Both the position numbers and the translations under genes were made by a program. Of a stretch of DNA of 64,000 nucleotides, positions 6,118-56,585 are shown piece by piece; positions within the stretch are counted from its first letter, which is position 1; every line of letters begins with the position of its first letter. The stretch is from NCBI RefSeq assembly GCF_041346925.1, contig NZ_CP166840.1, forward strand, positions 310,001 to 374,000. Direction: 5' to 3'. The notes under the pieces were generated by a model, which saw only the letters and a list, made by a program, of their open reading frames with translations, was not told the DNA's origin and made no database searches. Origin of the DNA: Agaribacterium sp. ZY112 (GTDB taxonomy: Bacteria; Pseudomonadota; Gammaproteobacteria; Pseudomonadales; Cellvibrionaceae).

Positions 6118-6594
6118 CTAGATATATTTCACTTCGGCAATCTCGTATTCAATCTCACCGCCTGGAGCAAGCACCACCGTAACTTCACCTTCTTCCTTGC
6201 CAATAAGCGCACGCGCAATTGGAGAAGTCACGGAGATTTTATTAGCTTTAATGTCAGCCTCATCTTCACCTACAATCTGATAAGTAAGCTCTTCATCATT
6301 CTCACAGTTAATTAAATCAACTGTAGTACCAAAGATAACACGACCTGTTTTAGGCATGGCAGTCACATCAATCACCTGCGCCGTGCTGAGCTTAGCTTCA
6401 ATCTCCTGAATACGCCCCTCACAGAAGCCTTGTTGCTCACGCGCTGCATGATACTCGGCATTCTCTTTCAAATCGCCATGCTCACGTGCTTCAGCGATGG
6501 CAGCAACAATTTCTGGACGCACTACTTTTTTGAGGTTTTCAAGCTCATCACGAAGAGCCTTTTCGCCCACAACTGTCATAGGATACTTTTGCAT
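6118..6594 (-). CDS. greA: Transcription elongation factor GreA
   Basis: The 158-residue length is standard. The N-terminal antiparallel coiled coil carries the acidic tip ([16 protein letters not shown], Asp41 and Glu44) that is inserted into the RNA polymerase secondary channel to stimulate cleavage of backtracked transcripts. The C-terminal globular domain contains [14 protein letters not shown]. The gene starts 11 bp after the carB stop and ends in a strong terminator, so it is the last gene of the carAB unit. The carA-carB-greA order is also known in Pseudomonas. Confidence 0.97.
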
Positions 6595-6605
6595 AGAATG
6601 ATTCC

Positions 6606-9600
6606 TTATTCTTCAACCAGCTTGTGCAGCTCTTGCAAAGGTCGAACAGTATGATTTTGACCAAAACGTAAAGCCATGCACAAAGCATTACCCGCTGCAA
6701 GTGTGGTGGTGTAATAAACGTGACTCGCCTCTGCACCACGACGGATAGAAGCAGAGTCTTTTGTCGCTGCTTTACCTTCCGTGGTATTGATAATTAATTG
6801 GATTTCGCCATTTTTAATCAAATCAACAGCATGAGGTCGACCTTCCGTCACTTTGTTTACTACTTTAACGTCAATGCCAGCCGCTTCGATAACTTTCGCA
6901 GTGCCTCGGGTAGCCACGATGCTGAAACCCAAGTCGTGAAGCTCTTTAGCAATCACAACAATGCCGTCTTTATCAAAGTCGCGCACACTTAAAAATGCGG
7001 TGCCTTCAGACGGCAATGCCGATCCAGACCCCATCTGTGCCTTAGAGAAAGCTTCAGCGAAGGTATCACCAGTGCCCATTACCTCACCGGTACTCTTCAT
7101 CTCAGGACCGAGAATCGGGTCAACTGCAGGGAACTTATTAAACGGGAAAACCGCTTCTTTAACGTTCATGAACTCAGGTACGATTTCTTTAGTGAAACCG
7201 GCCTCTGCCAAGCTCATACCCGTTTGACAGCGAGCCGCCACTTTCGCCAAGCTGGTACCGATACATTTACTAACAAAAGGCACAGTACGTGAGGCGCGAG
7301 GGTTCACCTCGATCACATAGATTTTGCCGTCTTGATAAGCCAACTGCGTATTCATCAGACCAACGACACCAAGCTCAACAGCCATCTTACGCACTTGCTC
7401 GCGCATTTGATCTTGCACATCGGCATCCAAACTATAAGGAGGCAATGAACATGCTGAGTCACCAGAGTGAACACCACATTGCTCAATGTGCTGCATGATC
7501 GCACCGATCACAACATCTTTCCCGTCACTGACGGCATCGATATCAACTTCAATCGCATTGTTAAGGAAGTGATCCAACAACACCGGCGAATCTTCACTGA
7601 CTTTAACCGCTTCGGTCATGTAGCGGCGCAGCTCTTTTTCGTTGTAGACGATTTCCATTGCCCGACCACCAAGTACATAGGACGGACGAACAACCAGCGG
7701 GTAACCTACTTTTTCAGCCTGATGAATGGCCTCTTCTGTTGAGCGCACAATGGCGTTTTTAGGCTGCAATAAGCCTAAACGCTCAATCATTTGCTGGAAC
7801 AATTCACGATCTTCTGCGCGATCGATAGCCTCTGGGCTAGTACCAATAATCGGCACACCAGCAGCCTGTAGGGCATTTGCCAATTTAAGCGGCGTTTGAC
7901 CACCAAACTGAACAATCACACCTTTGGGGTTTTCTTTATAAACAATTTCCAATACATCTTCGAGCGTAACTGGCTCAAAGTACAAACGATCAGAAGTGTC
8001 ATAGTCGGTACTAACGGTTTCAGGATTACAATTAACCATAATGGTTTCAAAACCGTCTTCACGCGCAGCCAAAGCCGCGTGTACACAACAGTAATCAAAC
8101 TCAATACCCTGACCAATGCGATTAGGGCCGCCACCAAGCACCATGATTTTGTCACGATCGCTAGGGTTGGACTCACACTCTTCGTCGTAGGTGCTGTACA
8201 TGTAAGCTGTAGACGTTGAGAACTCAGCTGCACAGGTATCCACACGCTTGTAGACAGGGAAAACTTCAAACTTGTGGCGCAATTCACGCAGGTTCTTTTC
8301 GCTCACACCAAGCAATTCACTTAAGCGCTTGTCGCTGAACCCCTTGCGCTTAAGTTGACGCATAATGTCGGCATCAAGGTCGCTTAAACCCATAGAGCTG
8401 AGCGCTTTTTCGGCCTTGATGATGTCTTCAATCTGCACCAAGAACCAACGATCAATGGCGCTTTGCTCAAAGACCTCATCGATGCTCATACCGGCGCGGA
8501 AGGCGTCGGCGACATACCAAATACGCTCGGCACCAGGGGTATTTAAATCGCGACGAATCTTAACTAAGGCCTCATCGTCTTCAAGATCAACTATCGGCTC
8601 AAAACCTGCAGACCCCACTTCCAAACCACGCAGAGCTTTTTGCAAACTCTCTTGGAAATTACGACCAATCGCCATCACTTCGCCTACAGATTTCATCTGT
8701 GTGGTTAGGCGCGCATCAGCATCACCAAATTTCTCAAAGGTGAAACGAGGCACTTTAGTCACAACGTAGTCGATGCTCGGCTCAAAGGAGGCCGGAGTCG
8801 CACCACCTGTAATGTCGTTCTGAAGCTCATCGAGGGTATAACCCACCGCCAACTTAGCGGCGATTTTAGCAATAGGGAAACCAGTCGCTTTAGAAGCCAA
8901 GGCTGATGAACGGCTCACACGCGGGTTCATCTCGATCACAACCATACGGCCGTCTTTTGGGTTCACCGCAAACTGTACGTTTGAGCCGCCGGTTTCAACA
9001 CCGATCTCACGCAGTACCGCCACTGAGGCGTTACGCATGATCTGGTATTCTTTGTCCGTCAGGGTTTGGGCTGGAGCAACGGTGATGGAGTCGCCAGTAT
9101 GCACCCCCATCGGGTCGAAGTTTTCAATCGAACAGACGATGATGCAGTTGTCGTTTTTATCACGAACCACCTCCATCTCGTACTCTTTCCAGCCAAGCAA
9201 ACTTTCATCGATAAGCAACTCGTTGGTCGGGCTCAAATCTAGACCGCGAGTACAAATCTCTTCAAACTCTTCCCAGTTGTAGGCGATACCACCGCCTGAA
9301 CCACCCATGGTGAAACTTGGGCGAATAATCACAGGGAAGCCGTACTCTTTAGGTACTTCAAACGCTTCATCCATGGTGTGTACGATCTTCGCACGTGCAC
9401 ACTCAAGACCAATGTCTTTCATGGCCTTATCAAAGCGCTGTCTATCTTCAGCTTTGTCGATGGCATCTTGCTTGGCGCCGATCAACTCACAGCCGTATTT
9501 GTCGAGTACGCCGTTGTCATGTAGAGCAAGTGCGCAGTTCAGCGCCGTCTGACCACCCATGGTTGGCAGAATCGCATCAGGGCGCTCCTTCTCGATAATT

Positions 9601-9827
9601 TTCTCAACCGTCTGCCAAGTGATAGGCTCGATATAGGTCGCATCGGCCATGCTTGGATCAGTCATGATGGTTGCAGGGTTTGAGTTCACCAAGATAACTC
9701 GGTAACCCTCTTCGCGCAGGGCTTTACAAGCCTGAGCACCACTGTAGTCAAATTCACAGGCCTGGCCGATGACAATCGGGCCAGCGCCAATAATAAGAAT
9801 GCTTTTTATGTCGGTTCTTTTAGGCAT
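6606..9827 (-). CDS. carB: Carbamoyl-phosphate synthase large subunit
   Basis: The 1073-residue protein has the complete duplicated ATP-grasp organisation. The N-terminal half begins [20 protein letters not shown] and contains [13 protein letters not shown]. The C-terminal half contains [19 protein letters not shown] and [11 protein letters not shown], followed by the MGS-like allosteric domain (from about residue 940). It uses ammonia from CarA, bicarbonate and two ATP to make carbamoyl phosphate for arginine and pyrimidine synthesis. It lies 12 bp after carA and 11 bp before greA. Nothing is truncated. Confidence 0.98.
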
Positions 9828-9839
9828 GGCTCTGTATTC

Positions 9840-11012
9840 TTAGGCTCGTTCGTTCATTAATTCAATGAAGTGGTCAAACAAGGGCGCCGCATCGTGCGGG
9901 CCAGGGCTCGCTTCAGGGTGCCCCTGGAAGCTGAACGCAGGCTTGTCAGCACGATGAATGCCCTGCAAAGAACCATCAAACAGTGACTTGTGGGTCGCTT
10001 TAAGGTTCGCAGGCAAAGTAGCTTCATCGGCAGCAAAACCGTGGTTTTGACTGGTGATCATCACACGACCAGACTCAAGCTCTTGCACAGGGTGGTTTGC
10101 GCCATGGTGACCAAACTTCATCTTCACGGTTTGTGCACCGGAGGCCAAAGCCAAGATCTGGTGGCCCAAGCAAATACCAAAAATGGGGATGTCTTTCTCA
10201 AGGAAGGTACTTACCGCTTCAATGGCGTAAGTACAGGGCTCAGGGTCACCAGGGCCATTACTTAGGAAGATACCATCTGGGTTCATGGCTAGGACATCAG
10301 CCGCTGGCGTTTGAGCAGGAACCACCGTTAATTCACAACCGCGATCGACGAGCATGCGCAAGATATTTGCTTTTGCACCAAAATCGTAAGCAACCACGTT
10401 AAAGCGCTTACCTTCAGGTAGCCCTTGGAAACCCTGGCCAAGCTGCCAGCTACCAGCGTCCCAAACATGCTGTTCTTTACAGCTCACTTCTTTGGCTAGA
10501 TCCATACCGGCTAAGCCCGTAAAACCTTTAGCAAGCTCAAGCGCGCGGGCTTCGTCTAAATCATCACCCGCTAAAATACAGCCACTCTGTGCGCCAGTAT
10601 CTCGCAAGATACGAGTTAAGCGGCGAGTATCAATATCGGCAATGCCAAGAATATTGTGCTCTTTGAGGTAAGCATCCAAGGTTTGCTCACAGCGGAAGTT
10701 CGAAGCCAGTTCTGGCAAGTCGCGAATCACTAGGCCAGCCGCCCAGATTTGATCGCGCTCTTCGTCTTCTTTATTCACACCGGTATTGCCGATATGAGGA
10801 TAGGTTAGGGTCACGATCTGACGCGCATAGGAGGGATCTGTAAGGATCTCCTGATAGCCAGTGATTGCGGTATTAAATACCACCTCACCTACGCTTTGAC
10901 CATCTGCGCCGATGGCGGTCCCACGGAACACGCTACCATCTGCCAAGACCAATAGGGCCTCGCGACGTTGCGCACGCTTAAAATAACTGAGATCTACTTG
11001 CTCTGAGGCCAA
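9840..11012 (-). CDS. carA: Carbamoyl-phosphate synthase small (glutaminase) subunit
   Basis: The class I glutamine amidotransferase subunit supplies ammonia to CarB. The N-terminal domain ([16 protein letters not shown] and [21 protein letters not shown]) is followed by the GATase domain. The nucleophile cysteine lies in [15 protein letters not shown], and the histidine/glutamate pair in [13 protein letters not shown]. The frame is open 132 bp further upstream, but I choose TTG at 11012. It follows GGAGGA at 8 bp and gives 390 residues ([15 protein letters not shown]...), close to family length. The extended version has an N-terminus unlike any CarA. The long leader contains a terminator-like hairpin. 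Confidence 0.93.
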
Positions 11013-11184
11013 GTAAAATTCCTCCGCGCCGAATGCTAAAAAGAAGTGCCGTGTGTACTTACCCGAGCTTACAACAGGCCGAACGAAAGAGCCGCGCTTG
11101 GTGTGCTCAGGAGCTAGCCACCTTGGCTTTCCTAAGTTAAGCACGCTTCTGCTTTTATGCAGTTGCTGTTCGTAAGACTGTTGT
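11013..11184 (-). other. carA leader (non-coding)
   Basis: An open frame crosses this stretch in phase with carA, but its translation does not resemble CarA. It lies upstream of the well-placed GGAGGA/TTG start. I treat it as the untranslated leader between the hairpin at 11189 and carA. Confidence 0.5.
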
Positions 11185-11331: not shown

Positions 11332-11461
11332 TGAGAATCATACAGTGAAAAAACGGCAGCCTAGGCATTGCCATTGTCCCGTCAACACATTGCGAGCAAG
11401 CTCAAACAAAGCTAACCTGCCACGACCACATAGCCAAGCGAGAACCAACAAGGAGAGATTG

Positions 11462-12286
11462 ATGCACTTAAGCGAAGAGCAGATTTGCGAGAAGATAAAA
11501 CAACGCCACAGTTTTGCCGCGACTATAGATTCGGGGGCATTTAGCATCAAAATTGACCGCTATGAACCTATGTTTGCAGCCGCCATTCACAATGGCAGTA
11601 AACTTCGCCAAGAGCTAGAGCAAAACTGCCTACTTAGCGAGCAAGAACGCTATTTTGAAGAAGATCCACACACTGGAACCTTTATTTCTGAGCAAGCCAT
11701 CACCCTTATTGCTCACGACTCACGCTACGAATACGACCTGAATCGAGGCCCTGAGACCTGCGTATATGAAAGCGCCTGGGGTAAAGAGGTTTGGAAAACA
11801 CCACTAACTGAGCCCCAAAAACAAGCAAGCCTCAATAAACACAGCCAGTTCTTCCGTATTGTCTCCGCTCTTGTTACAGCTTTGTTAGAAGACTTTGGAC
11901 ACTGTATTGTCTATGACACCCACTCTTATAACTGGCGCCGCTTTGAAGAACAGCGCACACCGGTTTTTAACTTAGGCACAACAACCATTACAGACAGCAA
12001 ATGGCGCCCTGTTATCACCCACTGGTTGAAGCAGCTCAACAATATCGAGGTCGAGAACTTAGATATAGATGCTAAAGAAAATGATGTGTTTTTTGGCAAA
12101 GGCAATCTAGCCGCTCACTGCCACAACAACTTCGACAATGTTGCTGTTCTAGCCACTGAATTCAAAAAAGTATTTATGGATGAAAGAGACGGCAGCCCCT
12201 TCCCCGACACCATTAAAGCCCTACAAGCTGGTTATCAAGAAGCCATGCAGAGCACAAACGCATTCCTCTTAAACTCAAGTAAATAA
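11462..12286 (+). CDS. N-formylglutamate amidohydrolase-family protein
   Basis: The start is the ATG at 11462, preceded by AAGGAG. An upstream in-frame ATG at 11345 would add 39 basic residues without homology. The 274-residue protein has the layout of the N-formylglutamate amidohydrolase fold: HDSRYEYDLNR near residue 87, a central DTHSYN motif (metal-binding type Asp/His) and a later NLAAHCHNNF. The family hydrolyses N-formyl or related amide bonds on glutamate-like substrates, but no histidine-utilisation genes are nearby, so the substrate is open. It converges with the symporter fusion, with a hairpin between them. It is the first gene of the accessory block after carA. Confidence 0.75.
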   Translation: MHLSEEQICEKIKQRHSFAATIDSGAFSIKIDRYEPMFAAAIHNGSKLRQELEQNCLLSEQERYFEEDPHTGTFISEQAITLIAHDSRYEYDLNRGPETCVYESAWGKEVWKTPLTEPQKQASLNKHSQFFRIVSALVTALLEDFGHCIVYDTHSYNWRRFEEQRTPVFNLGTTTITDSKWRPVITHWLKQLNNIEVENLDIDAKENDVFFGKGNLAAHCHNNFDNVAVLATEFKKVFMDERDGSPFPDTIKALQAGYQEAMQSTNAFLLNSSK

Positions 12287-12300
12287 TCCCCAGCATAAAT

Positions 12301-12328
12301 GGGCTCTTAGCTGTACAACTAAGAGCCC
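12301..12328. terminator. Hairpin between convergent genes
   Basis: A perfect 10-bp stem (GGGCTCTTAG / CTAAGAGCCC) with an 8-nt loop sits between the stops of two converging genes. There is no strong T tract on either side, so it may act as a weak bidirectional terminator. Confidence 0.5.
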
Positions 12329-12340
12329 TAGTGACGCCTG

Positions 12341-14512
12341 CTACAGATTCCAGCCAAAAACATCCTCAGCAACAGACCATCGGCGAGTCACCTTTTGCGG
12401 ATCTCTGCCCAAAATCCAATGATTGTAGATAGGCTCAATAGCGCCGCCATCACGCTTCAAAGACAACCACGTATTCATATAGATTAACCAGCTAATATCC
12501 TGCTTAGGCAGGGCAAAGACCACCGGCGCCTTCATATTCACCCCTTCAGGTATCACCACGGTGTACTCTGGATAGAGCACCGTCCAAGCTGAAGCCACCT
12601 CGGCCGAATACACAAAGGCATCAACACTTTCATCCTCACCGCCTTTAAAGAAATTACGTGGACCTGCAACCGTAATACGTTCAGCATTCGGGAAAAGCTC
12701 ATGAATGGGCGATTGGAAATAACGAGCCTTAGGCATGCCTAAGCGTAAACCCTCCATTTCTAAGATATCTGAGCGTTCACGGAATTCTTCACGACGTTTA
12801 TCTTTCACAACCAAACCAATGCTGTGATAGGTATAGGCTTCAGTGAAATTAATTTGAGTAGCACGCAAAGGCGTGATGGTTATCCCACCTAGAAGCAAAT
12901 CTATTGTGCCGTTATTCAAAGCCTCTACAGCCTTATCAACACTAGAATGTAAACGGTGTGCAACAAGCTCAACATCAAGATCCAAAGCTAACTGATGCGC
13001 CAGCTCCATATCAAAACCAACCACCTCGCCCTTTTCATTACGAAAAGCAAAAGGTAAACGATCAGGGAAATACCCTACTCTTAAGCTTCCTCGCTCACGA
13101 ATCAAGGCCAGCCTTTCCATCGCCAATTGCTCAGCAGTAAGAGCTTGTGGCTCTTCTTTGTGGACCTTAACGAGATTATTGGTTAAGCGCATCGCCTCAA
13201 AGCTTTTATCACCCGTGTAGTTATAGGGAATGGCTTTAGTCATAACAATGCCAGCCCCTATCATCAACACCGCCGTCAGCCCTAAGTGAATACCCATAGC
13301 CTGAAATAAGTTGCGCCACTTCAGGTGCTTCTTCACCGCAGCAGCAACCAAGAGAGTTACCACAAAACCATGTAGAGCAGCCAGCGCCGTGGCAAAACGC
13401 GCGGTAACAACCGACCCCAATAAATAAAGCTGAAATTGATCAGCAGGAAGACCAAAATAGTCCAACATAAAAGGAATAGCGACCGCCATGCTACCAAAAG
13501 CAGATAGCGCTCCCATCACGACAAAAGAGGCGTATTGATCCAAGCCCAGAGGCGAACCCACATACCAAGCCGAGAATAAAATAAAACCCAAGCCCATAAG
13601 GGTGCCAGCACTTGGGAAGCTGTATGCCGTGGGCACCAAAACATCAATAACGGAATCAGTCTCTTTGTTTTGTATGCCTTTATCTTCAATCATTTCCTTA
13701 CAGCGTTCGGCGATCATCGGTAATACCACTAAAACTGTACCGGTTGCCATAGCGGTAATCATTGCCTCACCGGCATTACGCATCAACTCACGATAAGAAA
13801 ACGGGGTCGACCACTTCACCAATAAGGGCATCGCCAATAAAGCCAGCATCAACCAAGCAAGTAGATACACCCATAAGAAGACCTGCAGTTTACCAAGTTC
13901 CTCAGGGTCCAAAGTACCTGCAGCCGAAGCTGAAATCGCAAAAATACCAATAGGCGCCAACTTACCAACCAGTGAAGCCACCCTCATTAGAGCATCGCTA
14001 ACATTAGTGGTTAAATCGAGCAGCACCCCTTTATTCTTTACGGTGATCAAGGCCCCGCCAATCAACAAACAAAACAACACCACAGCAGGCACAATGGTAT
14101 TCGACAGGGAATAGAAAATATTCGCAGGAATATACAGATCGAGAAAATTAAAATCGGCCTTAGGGTCGAGCATGCTCGCACTGAAGAAGCCTGCTGTTTG
14201 CCAATCAGGGTAAGCTAAAGGCAAGGTCAGCAACGTCAGCATGGTTAACAACCATAAAAACAAAATGACCAAACCACCGCGCATGCCTATTTTCTGCGCT
14301 GTGGTCGCATCGAGACGGCCAAGACCGCCAATAATGCTAACCAGTACATAAGGTAGTACCGTCATTTGCAACAAGCGCACATAGGCATTACCAATAATTT
14401 CGAGCTTACCCATCACCTCACCGAAAAACAGACCCGAGGCAATTCCCAAAAGCAAACCAATGATAACGCGCTGAAAAGCGCTAAGATTCTTAAAGAAGCG
14501 TACGATAGCCAC
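12341..14512 (-). CDS. SDF-family cation symporter fused to periplasmic solute-binding domain
   Basis: Residues 1-430 form a dicarboxylate/amino acid:cation symporter (SDF/DAACS) with about eight hydrophobic segments and re-entrant features (VPTAYSFPSAGTLMGLG). The usual NMDGT signature is not evident. Residues about 477-710 form a family-3 solute-binding domain (LRVGYFPDRLPFAF and VVGFDMELAHQLALDLDVELV). One polypeptide thus joins a secondary transporter to a binding protein, with the binding domain probably in the periplasm after the last membrane segment. I prefer GTG at 14512, with GGAG seven bases upstream. A longer frame starts at 14596 with no good binding site. The substrate is probably an acidic amino acid or dicarboxylate. 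Confidence 0.85.
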   Translation of the reverse strand: MAIVRFFKNLSAFQRVIIGLLLGIASGLFFGEVMGKLEIIGNAYVRLLQMTVLPYVLVSIIGGLGRLDATTAQKIGMRGGLVILFLWLLTMLTLLTLPLAYPDWQTAGFFSASMLDPKADFNFLDLYIPANIFYSLSNTIVPAVVLFCLLIGGALITVKNKGVLLDLTTNVSDALMRVASLVGKLAPIGIFAISASAAGTLDPEELGKLQVFLWVYLLAWLMLALLAMPLLVKWSTPFSYRELMRNAGEAMITAMATGTVLVVLPMIAERCKEMIEDKGIQNKETDSVIDVLVPTAYSFPSAGTLMGLGFILFSAWYVGSPLGLDQYASFVVMGALSAFGSMAVAIPFMLDYFGLPADQFQLYLLGSVVTARFATALAALHGFVVTLLVAAAVKKHLKWRNLFQAMGIHLGLTAVLMIGAGIVMTKAIPYNYTGDKSFEAMRLTNNLVKVHKEEPQALTAEQLAMERLALIRERGSLRVGYFPDRLPFAFRNEKGEVVGFDMELAHQLALDLDVELVAHRLHSSVDKAVEALNNGTIDLLLGGITITPLRATQINFTEAYTYHSIGLVVKDKRREEFRERSDILEMEGLRLGMPKARYFQSPIHELFPNAERITVAGPRNFFKGGEDESVDAFVYSAEVASAWTVLYPEYTVVIPEGVNMKAPVVFALPKQDISWLIYMNTWLSLKRDGGAIEPIYNHWILGRDPQKVTRRWSVAEDVFGWNL

Positions 14513-14673
14513 CCTGCGACTCCATTCCCGAAAAGCATTAAGTATAAGATTAGCGGCGATTCTACAAGAGATAAGAGTAGAAAGAAGCCTTGCCAAGGAG
14601 AAAAACTAAATAGTTTAAATAAGAGCAGAGGGTAAAACAGGCGCGCTGTTGCCAGCACGCCAAAGAAACAGCT

Positions 14674-15795: not shown

Positions 15796-15929
15796 ATGGC
15801 TCTCCTGTAAGTTAGTAATGCTGTATCTAACGTTCTGACAACCATCTCTTTTTGCAGAACAAATAATCAAGATTTGAACAAACTATAACAAGGCCCAAGC
15901 ACCCACTTTAAGTACACAAAAACGATAAA

Positions 15930-15950
15930 TATGTACTATTTTTTCAGCCC
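15930..15950 (-). promoter_or_regulatory. Putative AraC-type operator upstream of dehydrogenase
   Basis: The plus-strand word TATGTACTATTTTTTCAGCC(C) matches the element upstream of the PfkB kinase at 18 of 21 positions, including 13 in a row. It lies about 135 bp upstream of the dehydrogenase start. A second GTAC lies 21 bp away at 15912, the two-turn spacing typical of AraC half sites. Confidence 0.55.
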
Positions 15951-16105
15951 CACAGAAATTTGACCCAGGTTAAAAAGTCGTTCTTAGCCCTCAATAAAAA
16001 CGTTATCAACGTAAAACTAAAGCTTGCAAACAAGGGCAGGAACAGCATTACTCCCCCACAATTCTAACGAACCTGTTTTTTGTGGAAGCAGTGACAGCCC
16101 CCCCC

Positions 16106-24165: not shown

Positions 24166-24173
24166 CAAAAATG

Positions 24174-44827: not shown

Positions 44828-44869
44828 TTACAGCCTAAGAATTTAGCACTCAATAAAAGGAGCTTATTA

Positions 44870-45856: not shown

Positions 45857-46137
45857 CAGTCCTGCTTAAGGCTTATAACCACTGCACAACTAGGCTGTTG
45901 CACATGCACGTACATATTAAGAGTGCAACTATCGTCGCCATTGATACAAGGTACGAGATAATAGGGGGCCAAAGGTCTCCTTGCTCCAATGGCGTATTGG
46001 TGTTCATCAAGAGCAGGCCCCCACAGCTACCACCAACAAGCCCGCCCTCAAGAAATCGTACAAAAAACAAACTAATCATGGCGCCTGCGTCAGCATTCCA
46101 GTATGCTGCGCGCCCCTTTACCCTATCGAGATGAAAT
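45857..46137. other. Spacer before rhlE
   Basis: Open frames of 70-90 codons occur on both strands here, but none has a ribosome binding site or a recognisable protein. I regard the region as non-coding. It should contain the rhlE promoter, which I cannot place. Confidence 0.35.
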
Positions 46138-47613: not shown

Positions 47614-47652
47614 CATTAAAAGCAGTATTAAACCCATAATAGAAAATGAAAC

Positions 47653-47677
47653 ATGCCCTCAATAAAATAGAGGGCAT
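47653..47677. terminator. Hairpin after rhlE
   Basis: ATGCCCTC / GAGGGCAT is a perfect 8-bp stem 39 bp after the rhlE stop. There is no T tract, so it is a weak terminator candidate. Confidence 0.45.
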
Positions 47678-48034
47678 AAATCTATAGGCACTAGATCATC
47701 CCATCAAAGCTTAGTAAATCTCTCCTCACAGAATGCAAGCTATAGAACATATCCAGTAGTAACGAAGTACTTTTCTTGATCCTTACCCTGAAAAACACCA
47801 CTTATTACTTTTTCGAATAAGACAAGGCGTCGTGTTACTGACGCAGTTTGATACTTAAATTCCCACATGCATCATGGTGGCGCGTTTTTCATTGACAGTA
47901 CATACAAACACAACCAATAATGCGCCTTTGATATAGCTATAACCTTCCTACCATTTACTACTTAAGGTTCTATATCAGAGTTCCCAGGGATGGCTTGCAC
48001 TATAAATTTAGCTTCAATAAAAATAAGGTGTCCC
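47678..48034. other. Upstream region of the lectin/beta-helix gene
   Basis: This 357-bp stretch has no supported gene. It contains a good sigma-70-type promoter at 47892-47921 and an AT-rich leader with the RBS AAGGTG just before the start. Confidence 0.5.
47892..47921 (+). promoter_or_regulatory. Candidate promoter of lectin/beta-helix gene
   Basis: A perfect TTGACA (-35) and AATAAT (-10) are spaced by 18 bp. They lie about 115 bp upstream of the start. Confidence 0.5.
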
Positions 48035-49873: not shown

Positions 49874-49947
49874 AACAAGTACAAAGTAAGAGGGAGCCTA
49901 TCTACCCCTCTTACTTTTATTTTTTCACTTTAGAAAATCTATTTAAA

Positions 49948-50439
49948 TCACTTTTTAAGATCAGGCCAAACAAACTCAGATTTAGGTCTTAGTTTTTCTT
50001 GTAAGCCTTGTAAAAATCGCCTTAACACCTGATCTTTACACTCACGATAATGCTTATGTTTTTTTGCTCGAAAAAAAGCGCTCAATTCATGAGGCCCTAT
50101 TTTTAAGCCGCCCAACTGAATCAGATCGATCATCGCCTCACTCTGCAATTTAAAAGCAATTTTCAACTTGCGTAAGATGAGATTATTATTGAGCCTGTTT
50201 TCGGGTTCAGGTGGCCCGCCCTCTACAGCACCTCTCTTATCGACAATCAAAGCATTAAGAAAGATAGCAAGCTCACGATCTTGCATACTCTGATAATCGT
50301 CATCGTCGTTGCTTTTCATCCAACTGCACAGCTGAGCTCTTTTCACCTCTACACCGAGCAAGGAGAAAAGCTTAAGCATTTTCTCATCATTGTAATCCAG
50401 AGCATAACGAAGCCGCCTAAGCACGTCATTATTGGTCAT
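49948..50439 (-). CDS. DUF1456 (YehS-like) protein
   Basis: The 163-residue protein consists of two similar helical halves. The first reads NDVLRRLRYALDYNDEKMLKLFSLLGVEV and the second NNLILRKLKIAFKLQSEAMIDLIQLGGLKIG. This is the internal duplication typical of DUF1456/YehS proteins. I start at the ATG giving MTNNDVLRRLRY; 17 further upstream codons are probably non-coding. No enzymatic role is known to me. It converges with the beta-helix gene and lies 263 bp from the epimerase gene, which is divergent. Confidence 0.82.
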   Translation of the reverse strand: MTNNDVLRRLRYALDYNDEKMLKLFSLLGVEVKRAQLCSWMKSNDDDDYQSMQDRELAIFLNALIVDKRGAVEGGPPEPENRLNNNLILRKLKIAFKLQSEAMIDLIQLGGLKIGPHELSAFFRAKKHKHYRECKDQVLRRFLQGLQEKLRPKSEFVWPDLKK

Positions 50440-50701
50440 TGTATAGCTACCCCAAGTGCCATTAGCGTTAACATAGAACATGAAAGCCACTACGCTAGAG
50501 TGTGGCCAAGTTGTAACAGGCTACAGGACTTATAACTCTTTTTCACTTAACAGCGCGCCCAATAAACACCCTATTAATATGCTTAGGTCCCAACTTAAAC
50601 CACCTCGTGCAAACTACAACAAGAAGGCAGAGATCTATAAACCCACTACATACGTACTATGTATTAGGTGCTCAGAACATAAGTGAAATATAGAGAAAGC
50701 C

Positions 50702-51637
50702 ATGAATATACTAATCTCAGGGGGTACTGGTTTTATAGGCCGTGCTCTATGCAAACAGCTAGTCAAAAACCACACTCTGCTTATTAAGACCAGATACACT
50801 AAAGCGCCTAAGTGTCTTTCTGAGCAAGATGAAATACACTTTATCCAAGATTTGACTGAACTGCCAGATACCTATAAATGTGATGTAGCCATCAATCTTG
50901 CGGGTGAACCTATAGCCGATAAACGCTGGAGTAATGCTCAAAAGCAAGAGCTACTTAGAAGTAGAGTTTCAAGCACACAAGAATTTATTGACTTATTTAT
51001 ACGCCTTAAACAAAAACCCGAAGTTTTTATAAGTGGCTCGGCGATTGGATATTATGGTATTGATTCATGCGATCAAGCTATCAATGAAGAAGGGCGAAAC
51101 GATCACAGTTTTTCCTCTTACCTTTGCCAGCAATGGGAGGCTTCTGCCCTACAGGCAACAGAACTCGGTATTCGAACCTGTCTTTTGAGAACTGGTATCG
51201 TGCTCGGACATGACGGTGGCGCATTAAAGAAAATGCTTACTCCTTTCTCTCTAGGACTAGGAGGTAAAATAGGAACAGGGAAACAATGGATGCCATGGGT
51301 TCATGCCATTGATCTTATTGGCATTATCGAGTTATGCATAACAAACAAGCAACTAAGTGGTCCGGTTAATGGCACTGCCCCCAAGCCTGTTAATAATAGT
51401 GAATTTACGCATGCTCTAGCTCACTCACTTAAGCGGCCAAGTTTCTTTACAACACCATCGTTTGTGATCAAACTTATTTTTGGACAAATGGGTGTAGAGC
51501 TATTGCTCTCTGGGAAAAAAGTAATACCAGAAAAAGCCATCAATAATGGCTACCAATTTCAATACCCAACTATAGAAGAGGCCCTGTCTAAAATACTTAA
51601 ACAGGGAGTTGCTCTTAACAAAAATCAAGATAAATAA
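50702..51637 (+). CDS. SDR-type epimerase/oxidoreductase (YfcH-like)
   Basis: The extended short-chain dehydrogenase has the N-terminal nucleotide motif (MNILISGGTGFIGRALC). A YYG-containing active-site stretch (SGSAIGYYGIDSCDQAIN) and the C-terminal signature of the YfcH/SDR39U1 family (PWVHAIDLIGIIELCI and GPVNGTAPKPVNNSEFTHAL) are also present. Members reduce or epimerise unknown nucleotide-linked or lipid substrates. It stands alone on the plus strand, converging with the AhpD-like gene. Confidence 0.88.
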   Translation: MNILISGGTGFIGRALCKQLVKNHTLLIKTRYTKAPKCLSEQDEIHFIQDLTELPDTYKCDVAINLAGEPIADKRWSNAQKQELLRSRVSSTQEFIDLFIRLKQKPEVFISGSAIGYYGIDSCDQAINEEGRNDHSFSSYLCQQWEASALQATELGIRTCLLRTGIVLGHDGGALKKMLTPFSLGLGGKIGTGKQWMPWVHAIDLIGIIELCITNKQLSGPVNGTAPKPVNNSEFTHALAHSLKRPSFFTTPSFVIKLIFGQMGVELLLSGKKVIPEKAINNGYQFQYPTIEEALSKILKQGVALNKNQDK

Positions 51638-51679
51638 ACTCAGAAAAAATGTATATTGCCATTCTCGCCTAAAAGAAAC

Positions 51680-52141
51680 TTAAGAAAACTGCCCTATTTG
51701 ATAATCACCAGCAGGAATACCAAAAGCCTTCATTAGCTTTGTCCACGAATGTATATTCGTTATTGCCAAGCTTAAAATGGCAATGTTTTCTTGGCTTATG
51801 AAGTTAAGTAACTGCTGATAAAGCTCCTGCCCCTGTTGCTCATTACCAGACTCTAGTAGGAACTTTGCCCAAGCTAAGCATGCATGCTCTAAGTCGCTGT
51901 AATAGTCGACGCTGTCAAACACACAAACAGAATAGAGCTTATTAAGTTCTATTCCTGCATGCAGGGCTTCTTTAATATGCATATCAATACAATAGGCGCA
52001 TTTTGAGTCAGTTGAAACATAGACACAGACAAGTTCTAACAGCCCCTTATCTAAACCACTACCGTGTACGGTTTCACCTATCGCAGACATTGACTGATAA
52101 ATACTTGATGGAACTTCGTTAAAAGTAATTCGCGCTGTCAT
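51680..52141 (-). CDS. AhpD-like carboxymuconolactone decarboxylase-family protein
   Basis: The 153-residue protein has the CxxC-type active site of AhpD-like peroxidase partners (SKCAYCIDMHIKEALHAGI) and the family's downstream helix pattern. It is probably an alkyl-hydroperoxide or thiol-disulfide enzyme rather than a true decarboxylase. The ATG has AGGAG seven bases upstream. It is divergent from a LysR regulator with a perfect palindrome between them, which suggests redox-responsive control by that regulator. Confidence 0.88.
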   Translation of the reverse strand: MTARITFNEVPSSIYQSMSAIGETVHGSGLDKGLLELVCVYVSTDSKCAYCIDMHIKEALHAGIELNKLYSVCVFDSVDYYSDLEHACLAWAKFLLESGNEQQGQELYQQLLNFISQENIAILSLAITNIHSWTKLMKAFGIPAGDYQIGQFS

Positions 52142-52229
52142 AGTTATACTCCTGTTTTAATAAGCCTTAGCTCTATTTTGTGAAAGACAACCGCATCATA
52201 AGCATTGCTCAAAAAACCTGAATACGACT

Positions 52230-52254
52230 ATTATGCAAAGTACATTTGCATAAT
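52230..52254. promoter_or_regulatory. Palindromic operator between AhpD-like and LysR genes
   Basis: ATTATGCAAA-gtaca-TTTGCATAAT is a perfect 10-bp inverted repeat with a 5-nt spacer. It lies 89 bp before the AhpD-like start and 27 bp before the LysR start. LysR-type regulators usually bind such T-N11-A dyads and control the divergent gene and themselves. Confidence 0.75.
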
Positions 52255-52280
52255 ACGCAAAGGCGAACAGGAGTAAGCGA

Positions 52281-53213
52281 GTGCTTTCAGGTATTGAAAT
52301 TCTTTTAAAGGTCATTGAGTGTGGTAGCTTTTCAAAAGCTGCAAGCGCTTTAAACCTTGCAACCTCGTCAGTAACTCGCCAAGTAAGCACGCTTGAAAAG
52401 GAACTAGGCACCGTACTCCTAAAACGTAGCACGCGCAGCTTAATGCTCACTGAGCATGGTGAGCAATTTATCGATGAGGCCAATGAGTTATTAGAGCAAG
52501 CCTATAGACTTAAACACAGATTCAAAGAAGAAAGCTCTAACATTAAAGGCAATCTCCACCTCTCTGTCTTTGAGAGTTTTGGCCGTGTTTTACTAGCGCC
52601 AAAACTCAAACACTTTCTGCATCGCTACCCAGATATTAATGTCGATTTATCCTTAGATAATCACGTTATTGACTTAAATAAACACAACATCGATATAGCA
52701 ATACGTATTGGCAAACCACAAGACTCATGCTTAAAAGCAAGAAAACTGTTAAACAATGAGACTATTTTAGTTGCTAGTACGGACTATCTGCATAAAAACG
52801 GCTCCCCCCAAAAACCTGAAGATCTTGTCCATCACAGCTGCCTAAAAATCGGCAAACTAAAACAGAGAAACTATTGGTATTTCAGAAAAAAAACAAATAA
52901 AGCTAAGACAATACATTCCGACCAAGAACAGAAAAAGATAGCAATTAATGGCCGACTTTCTTCACTAGGAGGAACGGCCGTCATACAGGCTGCCAAAGAT
53001 GGCCTAGGTCTAGCCCAGTGCTCGAAATGGCTGATTCAAGAAGAGCTTGCTTCGGGCCAACTGCAAACATGCTTGGGAGAGTGGCGGTGCAGCATGACAG
53101 AAGGGGAAACAAGCGAAATTTTTGCCCTCTATCGATCAGCAACAAGTAAGTCAGTATTAATCAATGCGTTTATGGCTTTTCTAGCCGAACAATTCCCTTT
53201 AAACGACGCTTAG
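52281..53213 (+). CDS. LysR-family transcriptional regulator
   Basis: The N-terminal winged helix (residues about 2-60: LLKVIECGSFSKAASALNLATSSVTRQVSTLEKEL) is followed by a periplasmic-binding-like effector domain (NLHLSVFESFGRVLLAPKLKHFL onward). The GTG start has AGGAG seven bases upstream. It is divergent from the AhpD-like gene and a perfect palindrome lies between them, so it very probably regulates that gene. The effector is unknown, and a redox signal is plausible. Confidence 0.92.
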   Translation: MLSGIEILLKVIECGSFSKAASALNLATSSVTRQVSTLEKELGTVLLKRSTRSLMLTEHGEQFIDEANELLEQAYRLKHRFKEESSNIKGNLHLSVFESFGRVLLAPKLKHFLHRYPDINVDLSLDNHVIDLNKHNIDIAIRIGKPQDSCLKARKLLNNETILVASTDYLHKNGSPQKPEDLVHHSCLKIGKLKQRNYWYFRKKTNKAKTIHSDQEQKKIAINGRLSSLGGTAVIQAAKDGLGLAQCSKWLIQEELASGQLQTCLGEWRCSMTEGETSEIFALYRSATSKSVLINAFMAFLAEQFPLNDA

Positions 53214-53384
53214 TACTTCGCGCTAATTGGCTCAAGACGACATTACCAAAGGCATGCTCACAATGCCTTCAATCAACAAGAAAATGACCGCAAAAGCCAA
53301 ATACAAACGATGGAAAGGCACTAAGATAAAACGTATTAACGCTTTAACTAAGAACCAGCTAGCATCCTAATAGATGGAGCCCAT

Positions 53385-53849
53385 ATGGATATTAAAGTAG
53401 AAACTGAAATCAACAGCCCAATAAAAACCGTATGGGAAGCCATTACCGATTTTGAACACTGCGCCGATCGAATCAGCGGCATTATCAATACAAAGGTCCT
53501 TGAGCGGCCTCAAAATGGCTTAGTTGGCCTAAAGTGGGAAGAAACCCGCCAAATATTCGGTAAAGAATCAACGGAAACAATGTGGATTACAGACACGGAA
53601 GAATATAGCTACTACCGTACGAGGGCTGAAAACTGTGGTGCCATTTATCTATCAACAATGTCTGTCAGACAAGAGGGTGCGCTCACTGTTTTGAGCATGT
53701 CGTTTAGTGGTTCGGCAAATAGCCTGATAATGCGCTTGATTTCATCACTGATGGGAATCTTTATTCAGGGCAGCATGAAGAAAATGATGCAAAAAGACCT
53801 TGATGACATCAAAGCCTTTATCGAGAGCAGTGCGCAGATTACCAGCTAG
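53385..53849 (+). CDS. SRPBCC/polyketide-cyclase-like protein
   Basis: The 154-residue protein matches the START/SRPBCC helix-grip fold, with the starting strand (MDIKVETEINSPIKTVWEAITDFEH), a middle sheet and a long C-terminal helix (GSMKKMMQKDLDDIKAFIES). Such proteins bind small hydrophobic ligands or act as cyclases or stress proteins. The ATG follows GGAG. The last 11 bp overlap the 3' end of the opposite-strand gene. Confidence 0.8.
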   Translation: MDIKVETEINSPIKTVWEAITDFEHCADRISGIINTKVLERPQNGLVGLKWEETRQIFGKESTETMWITDTEEYSYYRTRAENCGAIYLSTMSVRQEGALTVLSMSFSGSANSLIMRLISSLMGIFIQGSMKKMMQKDLDDIKAFIESSAQITS

Positions 53850-54270
53850 ACCAATATGCGCCCCGAGCCTGCTGAGAATCAGGCTCTCCGTGTTTACTTG
53901 CTTCTACACGATCAAGCAGATGGCTACCGTTTAACTTTCCCTTTTCGATTAGCTCACAAATGGCAGCACCTATTACCTTGGACTGATCCGCGACATGCCC
54001 AGGCCTTGGTAATTCCGCTTCCAGCTTGCCTCTCAAAATAGCAATATGCATGCGCGGAATCATAGGCTCAAGGTGGTAGGCAAACATCTGCGCAAGCCCC
54101 GGCTCTAACCAACTTTGATTCTTGATATAAAAGACCCATGAGGTATCACGCAGGATCTTGGTTGCTGAGTCACTTAGCTGGTTAAAACACCAACGGGCGT
54201 AGGCTTCAGTATGGGTATCGTGCACTCGAATTTGGCTCTGATTAAAAGGCCAAGCGTAACGTACATCCAT
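53839..54270 (-). CDS. Unknown protein, 143 aa
   Basis: I start at the ATG giving MDVRYAWPFNQSQIRV; six upstream codons are less likely. The protein is helical with tryptophan and aromatic clusters (TSWVFYIKNQSWLEPGLAQMFAYHLEPM) and has no signal peptide or recognisable motif. It overlaps the SRPBCC gene by 11 bp in a tail-to-tail arrangement. I cannot assign a function. The gene could be a real accessory gene, and its codon composition is not obviously different from its neighbours. Confidence 0.55.
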   Translation of the reverse strand: MDVRYAWPFNQSQIRVHDTHTEAYARWCFNQLSDSATKILRDTSWVFYIKNQSWLEPGLAQMFAYHLEPMIPRMHIAILRGKLEAELPRPGHVADQSKVIGAAICELIEKGKLNGSHLLDRVEASKHGEPDSQQARGAYWSSW

Positions 54271-54540
54271 GATGTCATATCTCCACATCCCTATTATCTA
54301 GTTGCCAGTATAGTGCAGCCAGTGGCGCTTGCTTTAACTGTTACAGTAAAAGCAATATTTGCTGCCACACAAAAACCTTAAAAGATAAGGTCTACACATA
54401 GAGGCCAATAGCCATAGGGGCTGGAGGGTAAGCGGTATTCCTAGGAGCCAAGAAGAATAAGGTATTTATGACTAAAAAATCTAAAAGCTAAGCTCTGTTT
54501 AGGCTTAGCTACAATGCTAAAAAGCAAACGCTATAAGCAT
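54271..54540. other. Non-coding spacer
   Basis: This lies between the unknown gene and the glucosaminidase terminator. No gene or repeat is evident. Confidence 0.35.
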
Positions 54541-54579
54541 AAAAAAAGCAGCGCCACACCCTGTATGTTCACGCTGCTT
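54541..54579 (-). terminator. Terminator of Bax-like gene
   Basis: AAGCAGCG / CGCTGCTT forms an 8-bp stem (54546-54579) followed by seven T on the minus strand. It lies 22 bp after the glucosaminidase stop. Confidence 0.82.
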
Positions 54580-54600
54580 TTCTTAGCCCAATATATGGAC

Positions 54601-55521
54601 TCACTGACCGTGTTTGGCTGGCACCAAGTAGATGGGCTCCATATCGGTCAAACTCGCACTGTCAGCTGCCGCTAGGTGATTATGGCGTATCATCGAATGT
54701 AATAGCTCTACGTACTCTTGGCCTTTTTCACTGTATTTCACCAACCCGTTTGCCAAAGCCGTGCCCGTTAACTCTTTACCTTGCGCGCGTAACTTACTGC
54801 GAATCTCACGCAAAGCTTGATAAGCCGCATGCGTGTTTAAGTTCTGCATGTAGGCGACCACACTTTGCAGCGGGCTTTCAAACGCGGCCAGACCATAATT
54901 ACCTAAGTGCTTGCGCTGCTCGGAAGGTTTCATGGCGTGATCACCCCAAGTCCACTGACCAAAAAGTGAATTACCCTGAGTGGCAAAACGTGAAGTACCC
55001 CAACCACTTTCTACTGCGCCCTGAGCCAAGGCCAAACTAACTGGAATAACATCAACTCGGATTGCCAATTCAGCGGCTTGTTCAGCTCCCAAGCTAATAT
55101 CTTCCGTTTTGAGCACCTTGTAGCTTCGAGCAAGCTCAAGCAACCACTGCTTATCGCTCTCTTTCAGAGACTTAAAATCTGACTTAGTTAAGCTCAGAAA
55201 ACGCTTACGCTGCTCAATAATCAGCTCATTGGCCCGCAGAACCAAGGGAGCTAAACCGCGGAAAAATAAGCGTTTTTTATTCGCCACGGTAATTTCTTTG
55301 CTTGTTTTACTGCTCCACGACTCAGGGATACTGGTGAAATAAAGGCGCGGAGCTTCACGCACCCCAGCTTGCCACGCTTCTGGTGTGTAGTTGTATTGCT
55401 TGTACAGTACCAAAATGTCTTGGTAACTATGGTAGATCTGAGTTTTGTGCTCTTCGGCAAAAACAGATGAAGTGAGGAATAGCGCTAGCAAGGTGATGCT
55501 GGCAAGTCCTTTTTTAAACAT
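54601..55521 (-). CDS. Bax-like glucosaminidase-domain protein
   Basis: The start is the ATG after AAGGAG, giving a signal peptide (MFKKGLASITLLALFLTSSVFA); 24 further upstream codons are discarded. The domain shows the glucosaminidase-type motif ALAQGAVESGWGTSRFATQGNSLFGQW, with the catalytic Glu, and a downstream LQSVVAYMQNLNTHAAY stretch. Members act as periplasmic peptidoglycan hydrolases or scaffolds. It is the last gene of the second accessory block before fur. Confidence 0.88.
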   Translation of the reverse strand: MFKKGLASITLLALFLTSSVFAEEHKTQIYHSYQDILVLYKQYNYTPEAWQAGVREAPRLYFTSIPESWSSKTSKEITVANKKRLFFRGLAPLVLRANELIIEQRKRFLSLTKSDFKSLKESDKQWLLELARSYKVLKTEDISLGAEQAAELAIRVDVIPVSLALAQGAVESGWGTSRFATQGNSLFGQWTWGDHAMKPSEQRKHLGNYGLAAFESPLQSVVAYMQNLNTHAAYQALREIRSKLRAQGKELTGTALANGLVKYSEKGQEYVELLHSMIRHNHLAAADSASLTDMEPIYLVPAKHGQ

Positions 55522-55689
55522 CGGGCCGGCTCCTTCTTGGAATGGCTTTATATTTAATCGTCTATAAATGGATATAGAAAGGGTGTGAAACAAGAGAAAA
55601 GCCCAACCAAACCCTACAATGTCCGAAAGATACGTTTGGCTAGGCTGAATTTAAACAATACAGCGCCCAAACACTGTATTGAGCCTTGA

Positions 55690-56097
55690 TTAAGCTTTAG
55701 GCTTAACGTAGATGACCAAACTATGACCGGTTATCTCATAACCTGCCGTTTCTGCGATTTCATGCTGAAGACGCTCAATATCTTCATTGTGGAACTCGAT
55801 TACTTTACCAGATTCGATACAAACCATGTGATCATGATGGTCGCCACGATCAAGTTCAAAGACACTGTGACCACCATCAAAATTATGGCGTTCAACCAAA
55901 CCTGCACTCTCAAACTGAGTGAGTACGCGGTATACCGTGGCTAAACCAACATCTTCACCCGCTTCCAACAATGCTTTGTAAACATCTTCCGCACTCATGT
56001 GACGGGTATCGGAATTCTCCAGTATTTGAAGGATTTTAACCCTAGGTAAAGTTACCTTAAGGCCAACTTTTTTCAGTTCTTGGCTTTCTGCGGCCAT
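55690..56097 (-). CDS. fur: Ferric uptake regulator Fur
   Basis: The 135-residue protein has the Fur helix-turn-helix (LKVTLPRVKILQILE and GLATVYRVLTQFESAGLVERH) and the metal-binding dimer domain (HSVFELDRGDHHDHMVCIESGKVIEF). The second cysteine of the usual CxxC is Ser, as in Pseudomonas Fur. It represses iron-uptake genes when iron is plentiful. It is divergent from bamE (77 bp apart) and would lie next to recN in Pseudomonas, but here 19 kb intervene. Confidence 0.97.
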   Translation of the reverse strand: MAAESQELKKVGLKVTLPRVKILQILENSDTRHMSAEDVYKALLEAGEDVGLATVYRVLTQFESAGLVERHNFDGGHSVFELDRGDHHDHMVCIESGKVIEFHNEDIERLQHEIAETAGYEITGHSLVIYVKPKA

Positions 56098-56174
56098 CTT
56101 GATGCTCCGTGGGCTTCAAAGTGTGTATAAAGCACAGTATTATCGTCGGCCTGCATGCTTTCGGAAAGCCCTAA

Positions 56175-56585
56175 ATGAAAAAAAGACTCAATCTCACCCT
56201 GATCAGCTTAATTATCCTTAGCTGCAGTGCGTGTTCTAACCTTAAATTCCCTTGGGTTTACCAGGTGAAGATTATGCAGGGTAACTTTATTGAACAAGAT
56301 ATGGTCGATCAGCTCGAAATTGGCCAAACCAAAAACCAAGTGCGCTATGTTCTAGGCACCCCGCTAGTAGAGGATACCTTTAACCCAGATCGCTGGGACT
56401 ACTTCTACAATGTGCGCCGTGGTGACAAGGACTTTGGCAAGTGGCACTTCACCGTATTTTTTGAAGATGGCAAGTTAGCTCGTTGGGAAGGTGATGCCGA
56501 GCCTCGTAAGAAGGGACAAGTTGACAGCGAAGAACAAAACGAAGCTCTCGAACAAACCACCAAGAAACGTGACGCTAAGTTCTAA
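56175..56585 (+). CDS. bamE: Outer-membrane assembly lipoprotein BamE
   Basis: A lipoprotein signal (MKKRLNLTLISLIILSCSAC) precedes the BamE fold: VYQVKIMQGNFIEQDMVDQLEIGQTKNQVRYVLGTPLVEDTFNPDRWDY-type strands, followed by a charged tail. BamE belongs to the BAM complex inserting barrel proteins into the outer membrane. It is divergent from fur, as in Pseudomonas. The genes usually following (rnfH, ratA, smpB) are absent here. Confidence 0.95.
   Translation: MKKRLNLTLISLIILSCSACSNLKFPWVYQVKIMQGNFIEQDMVDQLEIGQTKNQVRYVLGTPLVEDTFNPDRWDYFYNVRRGDKDFGKWHFTVFFEDGKLARWEGDAEPRKKGQVDSEEQNEALEQTTKKRDAKF

What the first reader, a model, noticed from the sequence alone, without database searches (positions are those of the whole stretch)
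6118..56585. Conserved greA-to-bamE backbone interrupted by two large accessory blocks
In P. aeruginosa the run greA-carB-(one gene)-carA-dapB-dnaJ-dnaK-grpE-recN-fur-omlA is contiguous. Here the same genes keep order and strand. However, about 18 kb (11.0-29.6 kb) lies between carA and dapB, and about 19 kb (36.6-55.5 kb) lies between recN and fur. Both blocks hold sensing, transport and carbohydrate genes and no mobility genes, so these junctions look like preferred sites for gain of niche functions.
Basis: partly seen in the sequence, partly recalled or inferred. Interest (0 to 1): 0.72.

Follow-up and report, generated by a model that had tools for sequence, protein, structure and literature searches.

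The report
Gene-insertion sites in a conserved run
A run of housekeeping genes that is unbroken in many related bacteria has been opened in this marine bacterium at two (in fact three) gaps between transcription units, and the gaps hold a mix of newly gained genes and resident genes that moved in from elsewhere; this is a clear but fairly ordinary example of an insertion hotspot without a visible mobile element.

Summary
In detail: greA-carB-carA | 18.5 kb | dapB-dnaJ-dnaK-grpE-recN | 19.1 kb | fur-bamE, with no tRNA, Rfam match, mobility domain or flanking repeat found. Insertion is supported: a congener (G001) has carA-dapB at 0.35 kb and recN-fur at 1.15 kb. The two junctions differ. carA-dapB is loose across the family (over 1 kb in 24 of 37 measurable genomes of other genera). 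recN-fur is closed elsewhere (under 1 kb in 41 of 42) and open in all four members of this genus. 'Gain of niche functions' is only half right. The one block-2 gene shared by all four congeners, srkA, is a near-universal resident gene that sits beside comF in other genera, is missing there in all four congeners, and lies next to recN instead. The DEAD-box helicase, a sulfatase and a lectin/repeat protein have relatives at other sites in one or another sister species. Other genes look gained: the sugar isomerase of block 1 is in 2 of 144 family genomes. A third block next to greA has unrelated content in the sister species. Best reading: boundaries between transcription units that tolerate foreign and relocated genes; known kind, modest interest.

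The parts
6118..11144 (-). Conserved backbone, left part: greA, carB, carA
   Evidence: Pfam GreA_GreB, CPSase_L, CPSase_sm_chain; greA-carB-carA adjacent also in G001, G002, G003
11345..29608 (.). Block 1 between carA and dapB: 14 ORFs (N-formylglutamate amidohydrolase-like, SDF-SBP fusion transporter, Zn-alcohol dehydrogenase, DUF6134-like, HlyD, RND pump, response regulator, histidine kinase, MipA, class II aldolase, AraA/FucI-fold isomerase, PfkB kinase, AraC regulator, binding-protein-like 325 aa)
   Evidence: 8 of 14 found at the same site in G003, junction 353 bp in G001
16106..24165 (.). Sub-insert of block 1 not found in G003: DUF6134-like gene, HlyD-RND efflux pair, two-component system, MipA; G003 has 5.4 kb of other genes there (DUF6359 protein, 5'-nucleotidase-like)
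24239..28547 (.). Sugar cassette: class II aldolase, arabinose/fucose-isomerase-fold protein, PfkB kinase (all -), divergent AraC regulator (+)
   Evidence: isomerase in 2 of 144 family and 1 of 369 class genomes
29577..29601 (-). Terminator-like hairpin just after dapB (11 pairs), right edge of block 1
   Evidence: 8 terminator-like sites in that region, 2.5 expected; consensus match only
29611..36607 (.). Conserved backbone, middle part: dapB, dnaJ, dnaK, grpE (-), recN (+)
   Evidence: dapB-recN span 3-10 kb in 32 of 35 measurable family genomes of other genera
36702..55593 (.). Block 2 between recN and fur: 14 ORFs (SBP_bac_1, srkA, two sulfatases, HAD, DEAD-box helicase, ricin-B-lectin/repeat protein, DUF1456, epimerase/DUF1731, CMD, LysR, polyketide cyclase-like, 149 aa unknown, glucosaminidase)
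   Evidence: 5 of 14 found at this site in G003, srkA in all four congeners and alone in G001
38131..39201 (+). srkA (NF008738, 471 bits, cut-off 194): resident core gene that lies beside comF in other genera and next to recN in this genus
39228..44784 (+). Tandem duplication (repeat spacing 2.88 kb) of a sulfatase gene, proteins 90% identical; one 88% identical copy on another contig of G003
46138..47613 (+). DEAD-box helicase: at this junction in G003 (79%), at another site in G001 (64%)
47990..49873 (+). Secreted-looking protein with a weak ricin-B-lectin match (just below Pfam cut-off); relative (74%) at another site in G003
55656..55681 (-). Terminator-like hairpin just after fur (11 pairs), right edge of block 2
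   Evidence: 42 terminator-like sites in that region, 23.5 expected; consensus match only
55690..56585 (.). Conserved backbone, right part: fur (-), bamE (+)
1..5822 (.). Right part of a third block next to greA (whole block: genome 300214-315822; includes one MotA/TolQ/ExbB and two ExbD/TolR proteins and a TPR protein). G003 has 15 kb with two giant ORFs and no detected homology there; G001 and G002 have about 0.3 kb between greA and the same flanking gene

Best explanation
The two blocks (and a third at greA) are layered insertions into boundaries between transcription units of an old, otherwise stable gene run. carA-dapB lies between the end of dapB and the start of carAB; recN-fur lies between two convergent genes. 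Terminator-like hairpins sit just after dapB and fur, so cargo can enter there without splitting an operon. Cargo came in steps: srkA reached recN-fur by the time of the genus ancestor; the amidohydrolase-like gene, SDF-SBP transporter, alcohol dehydrogenase, sugar cassette, helicase, HAD, SBP and glucosaminidase genes were there in the common ancestor with A. haliotis; the efflux/two-component module, the sulfatase pair and the 48-54 kb genes entered after that split (or were lost or replaced in A. haliotis). Shown: empty, partial and full states among four congeners, and the absence of srkA from its usual place in all four. Inferred: the order of entry, that insulation makes the sites permissive, and that entry used host recombination (flanking homology or end-joining) and not an integrase.
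For: Empty or near-empty sites in the genus: G001 carA-dapB 353 bp and recN-srkA-fur 1,154 bp; G002 carA-dapB 2.1 kb; G001 and G002 about 0.3 kb between greA and its neighbour. Partial states in G003. Junction survey of 77 genomes, own included, and neighbouring junctions as controls. srkA: in 96 of 100 family genomes; within 5 kb of recN in 4 of the 47 genomes for which I compared both positions, exactly this genus; within about 2.2 kb of a comF-like gene in 11 of 11 stretches from other genera, bioB in 10 of 11; all four congeners keep comF and bioB, have no srkA in those 18-19 kb stretches, and comF is followed there by the M48 peptidase gene that follows comF-srkA in G034. In the gaps of 31 genomes, 94 homology groups among 172 ORFs are confined to one genome. 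No mobility domain, tRNA, Rfam match or edge repeat in the blocks.
Against: The background is high: of 40 pairs adjacent in G001 in the 344 kb neighbourhood, 3 carry over 10 kb here (srkA-fur, the greA side, and a 25-31 kb insert at genome 247-277 kb outside the finding), carA-dapB being a further one that the ORF caller missed. Two of 68 gap ORFs scanned from other genera carry a transposase domain (both lists show only the first 25 families). One large gap (G015) holds complex I genes, one (G029) has carA inverted and one genome of the order (G053) has the genes 2.3 Mb apart, which points to rearrangement as well as insertion. Terminators are consensus matches in regions rich in such matches. 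Genomes are not independent: seven gaps share an old gene, a chemoreceptor in the five that I checked.
Confidence: 0.78

Rival explanations
1. Old arrangement: the blocks were ancestral and were lost repeatedly elsewhere. (The rival readings overlap, so the odds do not add up to one.)
For: The nearest relative G003 shares 8 of 14 block-1 and 5 of 14 block-2 genes at the same junctions, so those parts predate that split.
Against: recN-fur is under 1 kb in 41 of 42 measurable genomes of other genera and 20 of 22 in other families of the order; the junctions are closed or nearly so in G001; the third block has no detected homology in G003.
Confidence: 0.07
2. Integrase-borne islands: each block is one or more decayed mobile elements.
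For: Modular cargo; two gap ORFs in other genera carry DDE_Tnp_IS240.
Against: No mobility domain in 28 block ORFs, no tRNA, no edge repeats beyond chance; cargo differs stepwise between sister species.
Confidence: 0.1
3. Mostly internal reshuffling: the junctions are breakpoints where resident genes land, with little foreign DNA.
For: srkA; helicase elsewhere in G001, sulfatase and lectin/repeat protein elsewhere in G003; complex I genes in the G015 gap.
Against: The isomerase is in 2 of 144 family and 1 of 369 class genomes, with relatives in Vibrio-type and Bacteroidota bacteria, so part of the cargo looks foreign. Whether nuo lies elsewhere in other genera was not tested.
Confidence: 0.25
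4. Nothing special: these are ordinary inter-operon gaps, noticed because the flanking run is well known.
For: 3 of 40 G001-adjacent pairs in the neighbourhood carry over 10 kb in this genome, one of them outside the finding and its greA neighbour.
Against: carA-dapB differs from seven neighbouring junctions across genera; recN-fur is opened in all four congeners and hardly elsewhere.
Confidence: 0.3

Closest known systems
Hotspots of horizontal transfer between core genes, including those without mobility genes (Oliveira et al. 2017, PMC5635113; abstract and passages seen)
   Same: Same core flanks with different accessory content between genomes; no mobility genes; the paper reports that 27% of hotspots lack any integrase or transposase searched for and proposes double recombination at flanking core genes
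   Different: Defined there within species by a simulated threshold; here seen between species and genera, and part of the cargo is a relocated core gene
Gene order decay by gain/loss with rarer translocation (PMC12190745, preprint; abstract and passages seen)
   Same: Both processes are visible in one place here
   Different: [quoted passage not shown] here translocated and gained genes share a landing site
Sulfo-EMP2 pathway with a fucose-isomerase-type isomerase (PMC9594981; passages seen)
   Same: FucI/AraA-type isomerase, sugar kinase and PF01116 class II aldolase in one cluster
   Different: Isomerase scores 139 bits against the SftI cut-off of 700; kinase is PF00294, not PF00365; no glycosidase domain among the 28 block ORFs scanned except the glucosaminidase

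Membership tests
Integrase-free hotspot between core genes (Oliveira et al. 2017) | Same core flanks, variable content between genomes | tested here: met
   Between species and genera:
Integrase-free hotspot between core genes (Oliveira et al. 2017) | No integrase or transposase in the interval | tested here: met
   28 block ORFs of the window; but 2 of 68 gap ORFs of other genera have a transposase domain
Integrase-free hotspot between core genes (Oliveira et al. 2017) | More transferred genes than the simulated 95% threshold over all spots of a species | not testable with these tools
Integrase-free hotspot between core genes (Oliveira et al. 2017) | Excess recombination in flanking core genes | tested here: inconclusive
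   Fourfold-site identity to G003 is low, near saturation by my reading (median 0.366 over 113 genes)
Integrative genomic island | Integrase gene, tRNA target, flanking direct repeats | tested here: not met
Sulfo-EMP2 cassette | SqvD/SftI isomerase over the curated cut-off | tested here: not met
   139.1 bits against 700
Sulfo-EMP2 cassette | Class II aldolase PF01116 | tested here: met
Sulfo-EMP2 cassette | PfkA-family kinase PF00365 | tested here: not met
   Kinase matches PF00294
L-arabinose/L-fucose isomerase fold | Fold shared with solved AraA/FucI | tested here: met
   Model mean pLDDT 89.8; best PDB matches are L-arabinose isomerases, TM about 0.77, 11-16% identity

The most novel reading that the evidence does not exclude
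Boundaries between transcription units act as general landing sites that capture resident core genes as readily as foreign ones, without an integrase: srkA leaving its place beside comF for recN-fur opened a junction that is closed across the rest of the family, and the opened junction then took further genes. Hotspot content would then not equal horizontally acquired content.
Probability: 0.35. Interest if true: 0.5.

Novelty: new member of a known kind. Interest (0 to 1): 0.36.

Why it matters
It gives a series of states (nearly empty with srkA only, partly filled, filled) at one junction within four congeners, and shows where the first gene used to be. That is a compact test case for how hotspots without mobile elements start, and a warning that genes found in such blocks need not be newly acquired. 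It also flags a rare isomerase-kinase-aldolase cassette of marine bacteria whose substrate is unknown.

Tried and rejected
Tested and dropped: (1) Recent exchange between congeners from low synonymous divergence: fourfold-site identity to G003 has median 0.366 over 113 genes, too low to date anything; the isomerase, aldolase and dapB are higher (0.47-0.51), but so are carA, carB and dnaK. (2) Attachment sites or target duplications: longest shared words at five pairs of edges (8-9 bases direct, 7-9 inverted) are within shuffled values (means 7.6-8.9, maxima 10-11); the only long repeat found is the tandem sulfatase. (3) RNA elements: none at gathering thresholds. (4) Filing the sugar cassette under sulfoquinovose breakdown: isomerase far below cut-off, other kinase family. 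A route for galactose-type sugars (L-arabinose isomerases also make tagatose; recalled) is only a guess. (5) Literature: the listings (12 of 67 papers shown; 8 of 122; 8 of 3,664) showed no title on carA-dapB or recN-fur as insertion sites; in PMC7336808 the passages with carA and dapB are gene lists of pathways. on the sugar route found no paper with all terms (63) or only listings that I did not read (64).

Limits of the counts: gaps run from domain to domain and exceed the ORF gaps by about 0.05-0.2 kb. Left out of the ratios: carA-dapB, 6 of 45 family and 11 of 28 order genomes with the genes on different contigs and 2 of 45 with a gene missing; recN-fur, 3 of 45 and 5 of 28 on different contigs and 1 of 28 missing. 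The dapB-recN class of 3-10 kb includes some genomes at 7-8.6 kb that do carry inserts. The stretches were chosen partly for large carA-dapB gaps. ORFs in scripts were called mechanically, so some of the 172 may be spurious; 68 of the gap ORFs of other genera went to Pfam, each list cut to 25 of 55 and 25 of 48 families, so further mobility domains may be hidden. The ORF caller used missed dapB of G001 and greA of G001 and G002; one search put both back by tblastn. Block genes were sought in congeners by DNA only, which misses diverged copies, so absence of the DUF1456, epimerase, CMD, LysR and cyclase genes from congeners is not shown. The contig match of isomerase and aldolase is by equal contig length, with the window's own row dropped from the aldolase list and only 120 of 150 aldolase hits listed; a few matches of short contigs may be chance.
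Full report
What is there. The window is 310001-374000 of a single 4.28-Mb contig. The nearest relative held, G003, is very probably Agaribacterium haliotis: the isomerase hit of that name lies on a contig of 255,422 bases, the length of G003's contig 29. The window's genome is placed in the same genus, in NCBI terms Cellvibrionaceae.

Are the blocks insertions? I measured carA-dapB, dapB-recN and recN-fur in 77 genomes: own, 3 congeners, 45 of other genera of the family, 28 of other families of the order. recN-fur: own 19.1 kb, G002 11.6, G003 8.4, G001 1.2; other genera 41 of 42 measurable under 1 kb; order 20 of 22. carA-dapB: own 18.7, G003 19.4, G002 2.2, G001 0.4 kb; other genera 13 of 37 measurable under 1 kb, 10 at 1-3, 9 at 3-10, 5 at 10-60 kb (in one of these, G029, carA is inverted); order 12 of 17 under 1 kb, one (G053) split by 2.3 Mb. 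dapB-recN is 3-10 kb in 32 of 35 family and 18 of 21 order genomes. Named loci from other bacteria agree within their 10-kb reach (27 of 32 and 17 of 20 under 1 kb). In fetched stretches of other genera the neighbouring junctions are mostly closed (0 of 12 or 16 over 1 kb for six junctions, 2 of 17 for dapB-dnaJ) while carA-dapB is over 1 kb in 21 of 27 (this set favours large gaps, and several control junctions lie inside operons). So carA-dapB is a family-wide loose junction and recN-fur is opened only in this genus, as far as sampled.

Layers. G003 shares 8 of 14 block-1 genes and 5 of 14 block-2 genes at the same junctions. Relative to G003 the window has three extra pieces: 8.4 kb between the alcohol dehydrogenase and the aldolase (G003 has 5.4 kb of other genes there), 6.9 kb between srkA and the helicase, and 7.0 kb between helicase and glucosaminidase. 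The HAD gene lies on the other strand and on the recN side in G003. The sulfatases are a tandem duplication (90% identical, repeat spacing 2.88 kb); they are nearer to each other at fourfold sites (0.57) than to the single G003 copy (0.41-0.44), which suggests a duplication in this lineage, though not a recent one.

Relocated genes. srkA occurs in 96 of 100 family genomes. It is within 5 kb of recN in 4 of 47 genomes compared, the four of this genus. In 11 of 11 stretches from other genera it lies within about 2.2 kb of a comF-like gene (phosphoribosyltransferase domain; the name is recalled), with bioB in 10 of 11. All four congeners keep the comF-bioB-bioF-bioHC-bioD genes and have no srkA match in those 18-19 kb. 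In G034, of another genus, the order is comF-srkA-M48 peptidase (htpX-like; name recalled); in all four congeners comF is followed by the same peptidase gene (70-75% identical) with srkA missing between them. The helicase is at another site in G001; a sulfatase, the lectin/repeat protein and a relative of the 149-aa ORF are at other sites in G003. Which way those moved is not shown.

Gained genes. The block-1 isomerase is in 2 of 144 family genomes (window and G003) and 1 of 369 sampled class genomes. Its named relatives are in Vibrio-type bacteria and Bacteroidota, several named after agar, carrageenan or fucoidan use. The aldolase has a like spread, and 40 of 89 isomerase rows have a longest contig whose length recurs in the aldolase list, with consecutive locus tags in two cases, so the pair appears to travel together. 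The model (mean pLDDT 89.8) has the arabinose/fucose isomerase fold. Substrate unknown.

Other genera. In 31 carA-dapB and 19 recN-fur gaps (congeners included) I found 172 ORFs of 70 aa or more; 94 homology groups are confined to one genome, one group is shared by seven genomes (a chemoreceptor in the five members checked), and the rest by two to four. The 36-kb gap of G015 holds complex I (nuo) genes. So content is mostly particular to each genome or genus, with some old shared genes and some core genes.

Third block. Between greA and the same 174-aa neighbour G001 and G002 have about 0.3 kb, the window 16 kb, and G003 15 kb with two ORFs of 1,817 and 2,923 aa; blastp found no homology between the two contents. 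The window's content includes one ExbB-type and two ExbD-type proteins. In 344 kb around the window, of 40 pairs adjacent in G001, three carry over 10 kb here (the greA side, srkA-fur, and a 25-31 kb insert at 247-277 kb), carA-dapB being a fourth that the ORF caller missed. The background is thus high.

Mechanism. Edges lie between transcription units; terminator-like hairpins sit right after dapB and fur. No mobility gene, tRNA, Rfam match or edge repeat was found in the blocks. The best-supported mechanism is entry by host recombination at sites where it does least harm, as proposed for hotspots without mobility genes (PMC5635113, abstract and passages seen). This step is inferred; recombination at the flanks could not be tested because fourfold sites are too diverged.

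Verdict. Observation confirmed and extended; interpretation half right. A good specimen of a known kind, with an unusually clear record of a core gene moving into the site.

Noticed in passing
window 1-5822 (genome 300214-315822): Third accessory block next to greA with ExbB- and ExbD-type and TPR proteins; unrelated giant ORFs at the same place in G003.
   Followed up: partly
window 12341-14596 (-): Sodium:dicarboxylate symporter domain fused to a periplasmic binding domain (SDF + SBP_bac_3, 751 aa); matches at E 1e-60 in 8 of 100 family genomes, own and G003 included.
   Followed up: partly
window 24239-28547: Isomerase-kinase-aldolase cassette, rare in the Gammaproteobacteria sampled, apparently paired with the same aldolase in marine Vibrio-type and Bacteroidota bacteria; possible undescribed sugar route.
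   Followed up: partly
window 39228-44784: Tandem duplicated sulfatases, 90% identical; best solved relatives are bacterial arylsulfatases such as 4cxk and 1hdh; a lipoprotein signal is my reading of the sequence.
   Followed up: partly
window 28631-29608 and L011:321-2356: 325-aa gene next to dapB without a Pfam or NCBIfam match, binding-protein-like by look; two copies in G003, the group 41-47% identical.
   Followed up: no
genome G000:C1:252114-277428: 25-kb insert with many small ORFs of 105-130 aa and two very long ORFs; the flanking genes are 0.7 kb apart in G003.
   Followed up: no
L016-L017 (G015): The carA-dapB gap of 36 kb holds complex I (nuo) genes, a core operon at an unexpected place; its usual place in the family was not checked.
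   Followed up: no
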